Below the pieces are notes generated by a model. That model saw only the letters and a program-made list of their open reading frames with translations, did no database searches and was not told the origin of the DNA. 64,000 nucleotides of DNA from Thermococcus guaymasensis DSM 11113 (GTDB lineage Archaea; Methanobacteriota_B; Thermococci; Thermococcales; Thermococcaceae). Within the stretch, counting starts at the first letter, position 1. Every line of letters begins with the position of its first letter. Positions 14,384-18,304 of the stretch are shown here, one piece after another. The stretch lies in assembly GCF_000816105.1 (NCBI RefSeq), contig NZ_CP007140.1, positions 310,001-374,000 of the forward strand. Direction: 5' to 3'. The translations under genes were made by a program, and so were the position numbers.

Positions 14384-14400
14384 TATCATCTCTGGTGATA
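14384..14400 (-). promoter_or_regulatory. TGM operator (Tgr/TrmBL1 site) before malP
   Basis: Read on the minus strand the sequence is TATCAC-CAGAG-ATGATA, one mismatch from the Thermococcales glycolytic motif TATCAC-N5-GTGATA. It lies 13 bases before the malP ATG and 16 bases downstream of TTTTAAAT, so it covers the expected transcription start. In this family such downstream placement marks glycolytic genes repressed by the sugar-responsive regulator. Confidence 0.85.
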
Positions 14401-14478: not shown

Positions 14479-16353
14479 TCACTTCTCCAGGACAAACGGG
14501 CTTATGTAGTCGCCGTACTTCTCTCTGGCCTCAAGGAGGCGCTTCCTTTCCTCCTCAAGGATTTCAAAGAGCTCCTCCGGGACTTCCTTAACCTGCTCGC
14601 GGTAGATCTTCTCAATACGCTCGATCTTCGCAAGAAGCTCCGGAACCCTTATCGTGAACTGCTTCTCGTAGTCCTCCCTGCTGTAGTCCTTGTTAAGAAC
14701 CTGCTTGAAGAGCCTCTTCAGGTCTTCGTACTTCGGGATGTAGCCTATCGGCGTCTCTATCGCGTCAACGTCACCGTGAACCCTAAGCTCCATCCACTTG
14801 AGCCAGACGGCCTTGTCGAGCTTGTGGTTCAGCCAGTTGCCGTTCTCGTCGCGGAGGAAGTAGTTGACGGCGAATATCTTCGGCGCTTTCTTCAGCTTTT
14901 CTCCAAATTTCAGGTAGTTCTCGATGTACTCGCCGAGCGGGACGCTCATGAAGTCGAGTATGGCCATCGGGTTGAAAGCTCTGACACCTTCTTTTCCGAG
15001 CGTCGCCGCGGTCGTTTCGCTCTCAAGGGCGGCACCCATTGTAACGACGCCGTGCTTCCAGTCGAACGCTTCTCTAACCGGCGGCCACGTGTCCTTGTCC
15101 CTGCCGCCGAATATCATCCCGCCAATTTCTACGCCGCACGGGTTCTCAAGGGCTTCTAAATCCACGTTCGGGAAGTGCTCCAGGCTGACGGTAAAGCGGG
15201 CGTTCTTGTGGCTCGGCGGAATCTCGTTGCCCTCTTTGTCTCTCTTGCCCCTCCACCACTTTCCACTGTGGTTCTCGCCCTCATCGGGTATAGGCACGCC
15301 CATGTCATTCCAGTAGGGCTTTCCGTCCTTGACGAGGACGTTCGAGAAGATTATCTCGACGGGCGAGTGGAGAACCTTCCAGATTATTGGGTCGTCCTCT
15401 GGATTAACGCCCTGGATTATGCCGAAGACGCCCTTCTCGACGTTTGCACCGCGGGCGATGCCGTTGACTGGGATGATGAAGGTGAGGTCGTCGCCGACGA
15501 TGTTCTCCCATGGTATCATAGCGGTGGACGTCTTGCCACACATGCTCGGATATGCACCGGTGAAGTAGGTCTTTCTGCCGTTGGGGCCGTTGACTCTCAT
15601 TAAGAACATATGCTCGCTGAGCCACCCTTCCCGGACAGCCTTCTGAATTGTGAGCCGGAACGCGGGCTTCTTCAGACCGATGGTGTTGCCGCCGTACTGG
15701 GTGTTGACTGAGTACACTGTCTCATCAACGAGGTCTATGTAAATCCTCCTCTTGTCGAGGTTCTTGCTGGTCTTCCTCTCGTCGAGCTCTCCTGCGCTGT
15801 GGACAAATTTGAAAAACTTTGCGTTTCTTCCAAGGCGCTTGAACTCCTCGTAGCCCTTCCTGTAGAGGATGAACTCCGAGTGGGCCACGTAGGCCGAATC
15901 GGTGAGCTGGACGGCAGGAATCGTGAAGACTGAGTTCTTCGGTCCGAGGACGAAGAAGCATATGAAGAGCTCTTTTCCACGCATGATGCCCTTCATGAGC
16001 TCTTTAATTTCCTTCAGCCCCTCGTCCCTGTCCTTTGTGTTGAGGAAGGGGATTTTCTTTCCGCCGGGCACGAGAAGCTTGGTGTTGGCCTTGTCCCTCG
16101 CCTGGTCGTAGTAGTTGTCGTAGTGGACGGTGTGGTTCGGCGTTTCGAGCATCTTTTCCTCGCCGTAGTAGAGGGCCTTCCAGCGGACGTAGTGTTCGTC
16201 TTCCGGGCTGTCCGTGCAGACGAAGACTTTGTCCGGTTCGAGCCACTCAATCCATTCCGCCAAAAAAGCGTGGAGCTCCGGGTTGTTGATTGCCTTGATT
16301 TTCTCAAACTGTTCTCTAGGGAGGAGTTCCTTAAGCTTTTCAAGTGCCTCCAT
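14479..16353 (-). CDS. pckG: Phosphoenolpyruvate carboxykinase (GTP)
   Basis: A 624-aa GTP-dependent PEP carboxykinase, interconverting oxaloacetate and PEP at the entry to gluconeogenesis. The nucleotide-binding loop carrying the reactive cysteine reads AYPSMCGKTSTAMIPW, and the FAVNYFLRDENG segment follows in the C-terminal half. Length is as expected for the GTP family. The ATG is preceded by GGAGGCGG, and TTAAATTC lies about 55 bases upstream on the minus strand. It is upstream of and co-directional with malP, but malP has its own promoter. Confidence 0.96.
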   Translation of the reverse strand: MEALEKLKELLPREQFEKIKAINNPELHAFLAEWIEWLEPDKVFVCTDSPEDEHYVRWKALYYGEEKMLETPNHTVHYDNYYDQARDKANTKLLVPGGKKIPFLNTKDRDEGLKEIKELMKGIMRGKELFICFFVLGPKNSVFTIPAVQLTDSAYVAHSEFILYRKGYEEFKRLGRNAKFFKFVHSAGELDERKTSKNLDKRRIYIDLVDETVYSVNTQYGGNTIGLKKPAFRLTIQKAVREGWLSEHMFLMRVNGPNGRKTYFTGAYPSMCGKTSTAMIPWENIVGDDLTFIIPVNGIARGANVEKGVFGIIQGVNPEDDPIIWKVLHSPVEIIFSNVLVKDGKPYWNDMGVPIPDEGENHSGKWWRGKRDKEGNEIPPSHKNARFTVSLEHFPNVDLEALENPCGVEIGGMIFGGRDKDTWPPVREAFDWKHGVVTMGAALESETTAATLGKEGVRAFNPMAILDFMSVPLGEYIENYLKFGEKLKKAPKIFAVNYFLRDENGNWLNHKLDKAVWLKWMELRVHGDVDAIETPIGYIPKYEDLKRLFKQVLNKDYSREDYEKQFTIRVPELLAKIERIEKIYREQVKEVPEELFEILEEERKRLLEAREKYGDYISPFVLEK

Positions 16354-16487
16354 TTTTACCGCCTCCTGTTTCTGTTGGCCGGTGTATTAAAATAGTTTGC
16401 CAGTGAATTTAAGTACTCCGAAGAATATTTAAGGGCATCAGCAGACAAATTTTTGTTGGATTATGTAGGGGAAACCTTGAAAAGCGG

Positions 16488-16504
16488 TAACACTCACGGT
16501 GATA
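16488..16504 (+). promoter_or_regulatory. TGM-like operator before the phosphohexomutase-like gene
   Basis: TAACAC-TCACG-GTGATA differs from TATCAC-N5-GTGATA at one base. It ends 14 bases before the ATG at 16519, just ahead of the GGAGGTGG ribosome binding site. The distance to the start almost equals that at malP (13 bases). The same site lies about 75 bases upstream of the divergent pckG promoter and could serve it too. Confidence 0.65.
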
Positions 16505-16518
16505 TAGGAGGTGGTACC

Positions 16519-17226
16519 ATGGAGCTTTACTATTCCGAGAGATTCAACCCGGAGGAACTGGCTCTTCTAGGAAGGGCCATTGGAACAGTTGCCCACGGAA
16601 CGACCATAGTCGGAAGGGACGGAAGGGCGCTATCGAGGTATGGTAAGAGGGCTATGGTTGTCGGCATAGTCAGCACTGGATCCACCATAATGGACGTTCG
16701 CCTCATCCCTCTCATTGCCCTCAAGGACTTTGCACATAAAAAGGGTCTCCCTTTGGCTTATGTGTACTACCACCAGGGAGTAAGGGTTGAAGTAAACGGC
16801 TTGGACGTTGAAGAGGTAAGGGCCATTCTCGACAGCAGAAACTTCATTGAGGCTCACCCAAGTGATATAGGAGCAACAGTTTACTATCCAAACGCCCTCG
16901 ACGACTTCCTGAACGACCTGCTCAAGAAATATCGTTTCAAACTTGAGAAAAGAGTCCTTGTCGATGCCATGAATACTCCAGCGGTGCTGTTCTTCCCAAG
17001 ACTCTCGGAGGCTCTGGGGATGCAGGTTGATATAATAAACGACATGATGACCAGCTACCTGCCGCCCAAACCTAAGGAGGTGTTCCTGCACAAGCTTAAA
17101 AAAGAAAACTACGACTTTGGGCTCCGCTTTAGGCCGGAGGGCGTGGTGGAAGTACACGCAAACGGAGAGGAGGTTGAGTTCGGCAGTATGTGGACATTAA
17201 TGGAGTACTTGAAGAAAAACCTTTGA
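16519..17226 (+). CDS. Truncated phosphohexomutase homologue, probably inactive
   Basis: A 235-aa protein related to the first half of phosphoglucomutase/phosphomannomutase. The domain I landmark TIVGRDGRALSRYGKRAMV and the domain II segment VLVDAMNTPAVLFFPRLSEAL are clear. The catalytic serine loop (normally T-A-S-H-N-P) is replaced by YYHQGVRV, the metal loop (D-G-D-x-D-R) is replaced by FRPEGVV, and domains III and IV are absent. Known enzymes are about 450 aa. It is divergent from pckG and carries a TGM-like operator, so a regulatory or binding role in sugar metabolism is possible. The ATG follows GGAGGTGG. Confidence 0.8.
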   Translation: MELYYSERFNPEELALLGRAIGTVAHGTTIVGRDGRALSRYGKRAMVVGIVSTGSTIMDVRLIPLIALKDFAHKKGLPLAYVYYHQGVRVEVNGLDVEEVRAILDSRNFIEAHPSDIGATVYYPNALDDFLNDLLKKYRFKLEKRVLVDAMNTPAVLFFPRLSEALGMQVDIINDMMTSYLPPKPKEVFLHKLKKENYDFGLRFRPEGVVEVHANGEEVEFGSMWTLMEYLKKNL

Positions 17227-17304
17227 ATTTTTCTTTTTCACCAACAGTGGGACAACTATTAAAAACTGCCCCCCACACTTATCCCCATTCTGGAGGTGAA
17301 AGTG

Positions 17305-17931
17305 GTGGGTATATTCGTGGTCATGGAGGGCATTGACGGAGCCGGTAAGTCAACGCAAGCGAAGTTGCTTGCAAAATGGTTTGAAAAAAAGGGGTATGAG
17401 GTAGTTCTTACAAAGGAACCTACGGACACGGCCTTTGGGAAGCTCATAAGGAGGCTCGTCCTCACTGGGGGTAAAGAGGGTATAATTGATGGCGCTAGAA
17501 TAAGCCACGAGGCTGAGGCCTTGCTTTTTGCAGCGGACAGAGCAGAGCACGTTCACAAGTTAATAAAACCCTCCCTCGAATCCGGGAAGGTCGTTATCTC
17601 AGACCGTTACTTCTACTCCTCTTTAGCATATCAGTGGGCAAGGGGGCTCGACCTCAAGTGGCTCATAGACTTGAACAGATTTGCAGTCCGGCCCGACCTG
17701 GTGGTGCTACTTGACCTTCCAGTCAAGGAGAGCATGAAGCGGATAAATGGAAGGGGCATTAAAACAGAGTTCGATAAGATCGTTGAACTTCAGAAGAAAG
17801 TCAGGGAAAACTACCTAAAGCTAGCCGAGATGTTTCCTGAAATAAAGATAGTGAACGCCCAGAACAGCATTGAGGATATCCACAGGGACATAGTGGGTCT
17901 TGTGGAGCAGGAGATTCTCTCAAAGGTTTAA
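17305..17931 (+). CDS. tmk: Thymidylate kinase
   Basis: A 208-aa dTMP kinase producing dTDP for DNA synthesis. The P loop [13 protein letters not shown], the DR motif in [14 protein letters not shown] and the lid region are present. Start choice: GGAGGTGA overlaps the first in-frame GTG (17296), so the GTG at 17302 or 17305 is more likely; 17305 gives the usual short N terminus [12 protein letters not shown]. The gene stands alone between the mutase-like gene and tRNA-Gly. Confidence 0.95.
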
Positions 17932-18012: not shown

Positions 18013-18026
18013 CCTCACGGTTGTGA
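18013..18026 (+). other. Short hairpin between tmk and tRNA-Gly
   Basis: CTCAC-GGTT-GTGAG forms a perfect five-pair stem with a four-base loop about 80 bases after the tmk stop and is followed by a few T residues. It may help define the end of tmk mRNA or of the convergent tRNA transcript. It is short enough to be chance. Confidence 0.25.
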
Positions 18027-18053
18027 GTTTGATTGTTCAGAAGAAGTGTATAC

Positions 18054-18131
18054 TGGTGCGGTGGCCGGGATTTGAACCCGGGTCACCGGCTTGGAAGGCC
18101 GGTGTCCTAGACCAGGCTAGACTACCACCGC
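18054..18131 (-). tRNA. tRNA-Gly (anticodon TCC)
   Basis: A 78-base tRNA with encoded CCA on the minus strand. The acceptor GCGGTGG pairs with CCACCGC, the anticodon stem CCGGC/GCCGG holds loop CTTCCAA, and the T arm is CCGGGTTCAAATCCCGG. It reads GGA and GGG codons. A TTTTTAAATA element lies about 37 bases upstream. Confidence 0.97.
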
Positions 18132-18163
18132 ACGGACACCGCGCGATGTTAGTACCGGACGAG

Positions 18164-18173
18164 TATTTAAAAA
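18164..18173 (-). promoter_or_regulatory. TATA-like element for tRNA-Gly
   Basis: TTTTTAAATA on the minus strand, upstream of the tRNA-Gly 5' end by about 35 bases, allowing a short 5' leader for RNase P removal. Confidence 0.5.
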
Positions 18174-18304
18174 GTTTACGCGTGGGGGACTTTTCTTTCC
18201 AAGGCTTCATTGAACATTTCTGTGCCCCAAAAACCTGAAAAGCACAGGGAACACTTCTTAAACTTTTCGTAAGTTCTATAAACCTCTACCCGCAGTCCAA
18301 TCAC

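What the first reader, a model, noticed from the sequence alone, without database searches (positions are those of the whole stretch)
16519..17226. Sugar-regulated pseudoenzyme: phosphohexomutase half without catalytic residues
The protein keeps recognisable domain I and II landmarks but lacks the phosphoserine loop (YYHQG in place of ASHNP) and the Mg-binding DGDxDR loop (FRPEGVV), and stops at 235 aa. It is intact, has a good ribosome binding site and a TGM-like operator, so it is selected for something other than mutase activity, perhaps sugar-phosphate sensing or binding a true mutase.
Basis: partly seen in the sequence, partly recalled or inferred. Interest (0 to 1): 0.55.

Follow-up and report, generated by a model that had tools for sequence, protein, structure and literature searches.

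The report
Conserved dead half of sugar-phosphate mutase
This gene makes a small, well-preserved protein built like half of a sugar-phosphate-converting enzyme but without its working parts, and nearly all its archaeal relatives keep it even where its usual neighbour gene has been lost, which suggests an unrecognised regulatory or binding role in sugar metabolism.

Summary
Window 16519-17226 encodes a 235-aa protein with the fold of domains I+II of an alpha-D-phosphohexomutase (model pLDDT 93.7; Z 22.7, rmsd 2.4 over 234 residues to T. kodakarensis phosphopentomutase). The phosphoserine loop, the DGDxDR loop and domains III-IV are missing. It is not decaying: 93 of 94 Thermococcaceae genomes keep an orthologue of nearly constant length under purifying selection. 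The T. kodakarensis orthologue, TK1404, is not credited with PGM/PMM activity in print. A TGM operator (1 mismatch) ends 14 nt before the start codon and is conserved in 16 of 90 loci. New here: in 62 of 90 loci the gene directly follows an intact sugar-phosphate nucleotidyltransferase (NTase) gene; five bacterial proteins examined fuse such an NTase to a PMM-like part that has also lost both loops. The NTase is absent or decaying in several lineages, including this genome, yet the half-mutase persists. Best reading: a catalytically dead binding/regulatory subunit, ancestrally of the NTase, with an NTase-independent job as well. Partner and ligand are unknown.

The parts
16519..17226 (+). half-mutase pseudoenzyme gene (235 aa, domains I+II only); T. 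kodakarensis orthologue is TK1404 by synteny and elimination
16488..16504 (+). TGM operator TAACACTCACGGTGATA (1 mismatch to TATCACN5GTGATA), ending 14 nt before the start codon
16507..16514 (+). ribosome-binding site GGAGGTGG
   Evidence: read from sequence
16477..16484 (+). weak TATA-like stretch TTGAAAAG just upstream of the TGM (inferred; clearer TTTTAAAC-like boxes in some related loci)
   Evidence: alignment of 16 upstream regions, by eye
16759..16788 (+). codons of YVYYHQGVRV (residues 81-90), where active mutases have the phosphoserine loop (ASHNP)
17119..17142 (+). codons of GLRFRPEG (residues 201-208), where active mutases have the metal loop (DGDADR)
14479..16353 (-). pck (PEP carboxykinase), divergent neighbour
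   Evidence: TK1405 in T. kodakarensis
17296..17931 (+). tmk (thymidylate kinase), downstream neighbour in 90 of 90 fetched loci

Best explanation
A catalytically dead, two-domain phosphohexomutase remnant that works as a non-catalytic binding/regulatory subunit in sugar-phosphate and nucleotide-sugar metabolism. Ancestrally it was co-transcribed with, and probably bound to, an adjacent sugar-1-phosphate nucleotidyltransferase with an LbH domain, as the PMM-like part of bacterial fusion proteins is tied to its NTase. It probably uses the remodelled cleft between domains I and II to hold a sugar phosphate or nucleotide sugar. In this genome and others the NTase is gone, the protein is still under purifying selection, and its promoter carries a TGM, so it should be induced by malto-oligosaccharides through Tgr/TrmBL1 and serve a second partner or ligand. 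Shown: fold, loss of catalytic parts, conservation, adjacency to the NTase gene, absence or decay of the NTase in several lineages, TGM conservation. Inferred: co-transcription, complex formation, ligand binding, regulation.
For: Fold of domains I+II; catalytic loops absent; 93 of 94 genomes; length 233-237 aa in 89 of 90. NTase directly upstream, gap 10-14 nt, intact in 62 of 90 loci, partial in 6, none in 22 (with L022 counted as intact because tblastn trimmed its ends). For the NTase-less genomes whose hits one search lists, the best are 32-37% identical paralogues or remnants; for G034, G035, G041, G045 and G068 it gives only E-values of 5e-13 to 2e-52, against 1e-174 or better for full-length orthologues. 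Bacterial fusions have the same order and the altered loop G-x-R-[FL]-D-P-x-G in 4 of 5, against G-[LM]-RF-[RK]-P-x-G in 28 of 28 half-mutases. At least 11 changes of NTase state on the tree. dN/dS 0.016 (L011/L012), 0.017-0.020 (L025/L028/L034), 0.035 (L014/L015), 0.071 (L016/L019), all NTase-less. 96 of 126 columns conserved in the 62 NTase-bearing loci are unchanged in 27 NTase-less or decayed ones. TGM core invariant in 16 loci.
Against: No binding, interaction or expression data. A profile of the family scores two native archaeal mutases (45.7 and 38.9 bits) above every fused bacterial protein (27.1, 17.4, 9.2, 7.7, L131 not reported; the third native mutase has 23.1), so common descent with the fused part is not proved. 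Median dN/dS is higher in the NTase-less set (0.105, 82 pairs) than in the other (0.060, 454 pairs), so constraint may have eased after the loss. The most constant neighbour is tmk (90 of 90), which this reading does not explain.
Confidence: 0.5

Rival explanations
1. It binds a full-length phosphohexomutase (for example the PGM/PMM or phosphopentomutase) through the domain I surface and modulates it, independent of any NTase.
For: The genome holds three full mutases; the closest fold is the T. kodakarensis phosphopentomutase (Z 22.7, rmsd 2.4, 234 residues); the TGM would co-express it with the glycolytic regulon. It explains survival without the NTase.
Against: No mutase gene lies beside it: the flanks I compared (1.5 kb or less on each side) gave pck, the NTase, malP in L067, and tmk. 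No interaction was computed.
Confidence: 0.2
2. It is a stand-alone ligand-binding protein or an enzyme with a new chemistry in the remodelled cleft.
For: Invariant Y83, Y84, G87, R203, F204, P206 and G208 sit at the two former catalytic loops; strong conservation without the NTase.
Against: No sign of another activity: the Pfam and NCBIfam scans gave only mutase-family matches and weak noise.
Confidence: 0.18
3. A truncated, decaying mutase gene (pseudogene).
For: It lacks domains III-IV and the catalytic residues; median dN/dS is somewhat higher in NTase-less loci.
Against: Orthologues in 93 of 94 genomes, no stop codon inside the listed orthologous frames, nearly constant length in 90 loci, dN/dS at most 0.22 in the pairs compared.
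Confidence: 0.01
4. Half of a split active mutase whose other half is encoded elsewhere.
For: It ends at about the end of domain II.
Against: The genome has three PGM_PMM_IV domains, all in frames of 472-481 aa, so no orphan C-terminal half; the catalytic serine and metal loops that belong to domains I-II are themselves missing.
Confidence: 0.02

Closest known systems
TK1404 of Thermococcus kodakarensis (annotated phosphomannomutase, COG1109)
   Same: The orthologue itself (L028 in G023): next to pck (TK1405), half-size, TGM upstream. Of three proteins tested only TK1108 had both PGM and PMM activity (PMC11940775 passage citing Rashid 2004; that TK1404 had neither is my recall of the Rashid abstract, whose text is not held).
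   Different: The one held paper with the TK number mentions it once, in a list; its half size, the NTase link and the operator do not appear in the passage seen.
Bacterial fused sugar-phosphate nucleotidyltransferase with a PMM-like C-terminal part (832-845 aa; L127-L131)
   Same: NTase followed by a PMM-like part that has also lost SHNP and DGDxDR; similar GxRFxPxG replacement in 4 of 5.
   Different: One fused chain, long enough to hold domains III-IV as well (not scanned); here a separate 235-aa gene, and in this genome no NTase.
GMPPA, non-catalytic partner of GDP-mannose pyrophosphorylase GMPPB (PMC11228364, abstract and passages)
   Same: Possible working analogy: a dead subunit that gives allosteric feedback to a sugar nucleotidyltransferase.
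   Different: GMPPA is a dead NTase paralogue, not a phosphohexomutase; analogy only.
GlmM bound to the c-di-AMP cyclase CdaA (PDB titles 7olh, 7ojs, 9g69; PMC8573169, title and abstract start in a listing)
   Same: A phosphohexomutase-fold protein acting by protein binding on another enzyme.
   Different: GlmM is a mutase with its catalytic parts (recalled); analogy only.

Membership tests
active alpha-D-phosphohexomutase (PGM/PMM/GlmM) | fold of domains I and II | tested here: met
   Foldseek E 4.3e-14, prob 1.00; VIA-align Z 22.7, rmsd 2.4, 234 residues. Chain ranges run to residue 339-354, so the last helix may be laid on domain III.
active alpha-D-phosphohexomutase (PGM/PMM/GlmM) | phosphoserine loop (SHNP) | tested here: not met
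   YVYYHQG with a 3-residue deletion
active alpha-D-phosphohexomutase (PGM/PMM/GlmM) | metal loop DGDxDR | tested here: not met
   RFRPEG
active alpha-D-phosphohexomutase (PGM/PMM/GlmM) | domains III and IV | tested here: not met
   235 aa; no PGM_PMM_III or IV match; G000's three PGM_PMM_IV matches lie in full-length frames
active alpha-D-phosphohexomutase (PGM/PMM/GlmM) | mutase activity | not testable with these tools
   Literature: only TK1108 of three tested had both activities
PMM-like part of fused NTase proteins | directly follows an NTase | tested here: met
   62 of 90 loci, as a separate gene; not met in the window genome itself
PMM-like part of fused NTase proteins | both catalytic loops replaced, GxRFxPxG-like loop | tested here: met
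   28 of 28 aligned half-mutases; 4 of 5 fused proteins, L127 reads GFVLFPHG
PMM-like part of fused NTase proteins | closer to the fused parts than to canonical mutases | tested here: inconclusive
   HMM scores favour two native archaeal mutases; no tree of the three groups was built
PMM-like part of fused NTase proteins | fusion and room for domains III-IV | tested here: not met
   235 aa, separate gene
Tgr/TrmBL1 (TGM) regulon | TGM in the promoter region | tested here: met
   1 mismatch at 16488-16504; core invariant in 16 loci
[quoted passage not shown]
   TTTTAAAC or TTTTGAAC/TTTAAAC-like boxes directly before the TGM in some loci (for example L025, L028, L034); weak in the window (by eye); rule from PMC4158304 passages
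Tgr/TrmBL1 (TGM) regulon | regulation in vivo | not tested
   no expression data seen

The most novel reading that the evidence does not exclude
A family-wide pseudo-mutase that started as the regulatory half of a split nucleotidyltransferase complex and, after repeated loss of that enzyme, was kept and placed in the TGM promoter class as a free-standing sugar-metabolite sensor controlling another central-carbon enzyme.
Probability: 0.25. Interest if true: 0.75.

Novelty: new variant of a known kind. Interest (0 to 1): 0.5.

Why it matters
Pseudoenzymes in archaea are, to my knowledge, little documented. This one is near-universal in Thermococcaceae, has a ready genetic model (T. kodakarensis TK1404) and offers a natural experiment: the same protein with and without its NTase neighbour in closely related species. 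It would also give a handle on the PMM-like part of bacterial fused nucleotidyltransferases, for which I found no described role in the searches made.

Tried and rejected
Rejected: pseudogene; split active mutase. Distribution outside the family: in 21 other genomes of the phylum the profile gave weak hits in 5 (best E 2.0e-11), which I did not inspect but which fit ordinary mutases; the other 16 had none. Other phyla were not searched with the profile; the genome-contig scan, which finds close relatives only, gave five Thermococcales loci.

Led nowhere: a tblastn of an orthologue (L070) in plasmids found one distant Pseudomonas mutase only (not fetched). The first structure model with 28 orthologues was poor (pLDDT 71.4); adding 14 native mutases gave 93.7, so part of the confidence may come from the mutase rows. 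Papers: TK1404 one paper; phosphomannomutase+TGM+Thermococcales none; fused-NTase searches nothing usable; TK1403/TK1405/PH1695-1697 two papers, one used. The P. furiosus TrmBL1 ChIP-seq paper does not mention PF0288-PF0291, the numbers I tried for this locus; I do not know this gene's PF number. Columns conserved with the NTase but changed without it (I29T, I38L, N115S, F135L, F168M/L/I and G196E/D in all ten loci of the window's clade; F140L/M in seven of the ten) were noted as a possible old interface but not followed. I did not test an NTase complex: no tool for it.

Full report
What is there. The window lies in a 1.92-Mb single-contig genome of a Thermococcus-like archaeon (the nearest named relatives found are Thermococcus MAGs). 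At 16519-17226 (+) an ATG after GGAGGTGG opens a 235-codon frame. Pfam finds PGM_PMM_I at 25.2 bits (cut-off 22.5) and nothing else significant; NCBIfam finds the archaeal GlmM model far below its cut-off (59.7 of 439 bits). The genome has four domain I matches but only three domain IV matches, all in frames of 472-481 aa, so this is a lone half and no orphan second half was found.

Catalytic parts. Aligned with 26 orthologues and 14 native mutases (half of the rows were displayed), the protein lacks the N-terminal GTxGIR loop and has YVYYHQGVRV for ASHNPPEYNGIKV. In a second alignment with 9 native mutases it has RFRPEG for AHDGDADR. It ends at about the end of domain II. A model built on the first alignment has pLDDT 93.7 and matches phosphohexomutases along its whole length: T. 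kodakarensis phosphopentomutase 9ix8, Foldseek E 4.3e-14, VIA-align Z 22.7, rmsd 2.4, 234 residues. The aligned ranges in the targets run to residues 339-354, so the last helix may be laid on domain III rather than II.

The family. 93 of 94 Thermococcaceae genomes hold a close orthologue (69-92% identical) besides ordinary mutases; the one without (G052) is 73% complete. I fetched 90 loci (30, 60; G051, G082 and G083 were not fetched), the window's own included. Length is 233-237 aa in 89; L094 reads 241 from the matched codon. In 21 other genomes of the phylum no half-mutase was recognised. Other phyla were not searched with the profile.

Known function data. G023 is T. kodakarensis: its mutase domain IV at 971939-972118 adjoins position 971852, which a paper places just downstream of TK1108 (PMC12628685 passage); its length, 2,088,737, fits my recall of KOD1. 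Its half-mutase L028 lies beside pck, and pck is TK1405 (PMC11921379 passage). T. kodakarensis has four COG1109 members, TK1108, TK1404, TK1777 (phosphopentomutase) and TK2185; of the other three proteins only that of TK1108 showed both PGM and PMM activity (PMC11940775 passage). I recall the abstract of Rashid 2004 as saying that the other two had neither, but its text is not held. By synteny and elimination (four matches in G023, three of them with domain IV) TK1404 is the half-mutase. So mutase activity has been looked for and, as far as I can see, not found.

The missed neighbour. In most loci the gene ending 10-14 nt upstream is a protein of about 361 aa with NTP_transferase and hexapeptide/LbH domains (one member scanned), nearest NCBIfam model mannose-1-phosphate guanylyltransferase (260 bits, below its 440 cut-off), so its substrate is not settled. 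It is intact in 62 of 90 loci, partial in 6 (L020, L033, L042, L043, L044, and L088 which is cut by a contig end) and absent in 22, including this genome (L022 moved from partial to intact because only its ends were trimmed). In the NTase-less genomes whose other hits are listed, the best are 32-37% identical paralogues or remnants; for G034, G035, G041, G045 and G068 only E-values of 5e-13 to 2e-52 are given, against 1e-174 or better for full-length orthologues (list cut). On a half-mutase+Tmk tree the intact state needs at least 11 changes (L088 left out, remnants counted as not intact); 29 of 86 inner branches have support under 80. Remnants, and the presence of the NTase in five further genera, argue for losses; recombination could have spread some of them.

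Link to fused proteins. Among 248 plasmid records with a match to the NTase I examined five: all hold single frames of 832-845 aa, an NTase followed after a hexapeptide-like stretch (by eye) by a PMM-like part. That part also lacks SHNP and DGDxDR in all five, and four of five carry GxR[FL]DPxG where the half-mutases have G[LM]RF[RK]PxG. Against this, a profile of the half-mutases scores two native mutases (45.7 and 38.9 bits) above every fused protein (27.1 at best; third native mutase 23.1). The shared order and loop make a split of such a fusion attractive but not proved.

Selection without the partner. Close NTase-less pairs give NG86 dN/dS of 0.016-0.071. Over all pairs with dS 0.2-1.5 the median is 0.105 in the NTase-less set (26 loci, 82 pairs) and 0.060 in the other (63 loci, 454 pairs; L033, later found to hold only a remnant, was in this second set, and L088 in neither); between sets it is 0.100 (399 pairs). 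So some relaxation is possible. Of 126 columns at least 95% identical in the 62 NTase-bearing loci, 96 are unchanged in the 27 others examined. The protein therefore has a role that does not need the NTase.

Operator. The TGM before the gene has 1 mismatch. Sixteen loci, all without the NTase, have a TGM with at most 2 mismatches; 0 of 90 downstream controls and 1 of 90 shuffles do. Their flanks differ but the core half-sites do not; they need at least three changes on the tree. Part of this spread may be by recombination: L021 is 91-97% identical to the window over the 750 bp before the start codon (promoter and 5' part of pck) but 73-75% at 150-600 bp inside the half-mutase gene, whereas L011, nearer by the gene itself, has 79-93% upstream. 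Upstream of the NTase itself 28 of 65 loci have a weak TGM-like site (3 mismatches or fewer; about 4.8 expected from shuffles; three of the 65 are remnants), next to a TATA-like box by eye (the loci are related, so this may be one ancestral site). By the published rule a TGM downstream of the TATA box means repression relieved by maltotriose (PMC4158304 passages); the window's own TATA box is weak, so direction is an inference.

Reading. The fold, dead site, neighbouring NTase and fused counterpart point to a non-catalytic subunit, like GMPPA for GMPPB (PMC11228364 abstract and passages) or GlmM bound to CdaA (PDB titles; PMC8573169 title and abstract start). The absence of the NTase in many genomes shows that this cannot be the whole story. 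Which partner or metabolite it serves is open; tmk, next door in 90 of 90 loci and within an estimated 30 nt in 13 of them, is one more candidate to test.

Noticed in passing
L021 versus window locus L010: DNA identity falls from 91-97% over the 750 bp before the start codon (promoter and 5' part of pck) to 73-75% inside the half-mutase gene: a recombination breakpoint near its start, suggesting that a pck-TGM-promoter cassette can spread and displace the NTase.
   Followed up: partly
window 14384-14400: A second TGM (1 mismatch) lies directly before the first ATG of the malP (maltodextrin phosphorylase) frame, next but one to the finding.
   Followed up: no
L020, L033, L042, L043, L044 (upstream of the half-mutase): Decaying NTase genes next to intact half-mutase genes; L067 shows a short 3' remnant by eye.
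   Followed up: partly
90 fetched loci, downstream of the half-mutase: Thymidylate kinase follows in 90 of 90 loci, within an estimated 30 nt in 13 loci, all with an intact NTase, where a three-gene operon is likely.
   Followed up: partly
window 18054-18131 (-): tRNA-Gly(TCC) lies under a spurious ORF at 18023-18238.
   Followed up: yes
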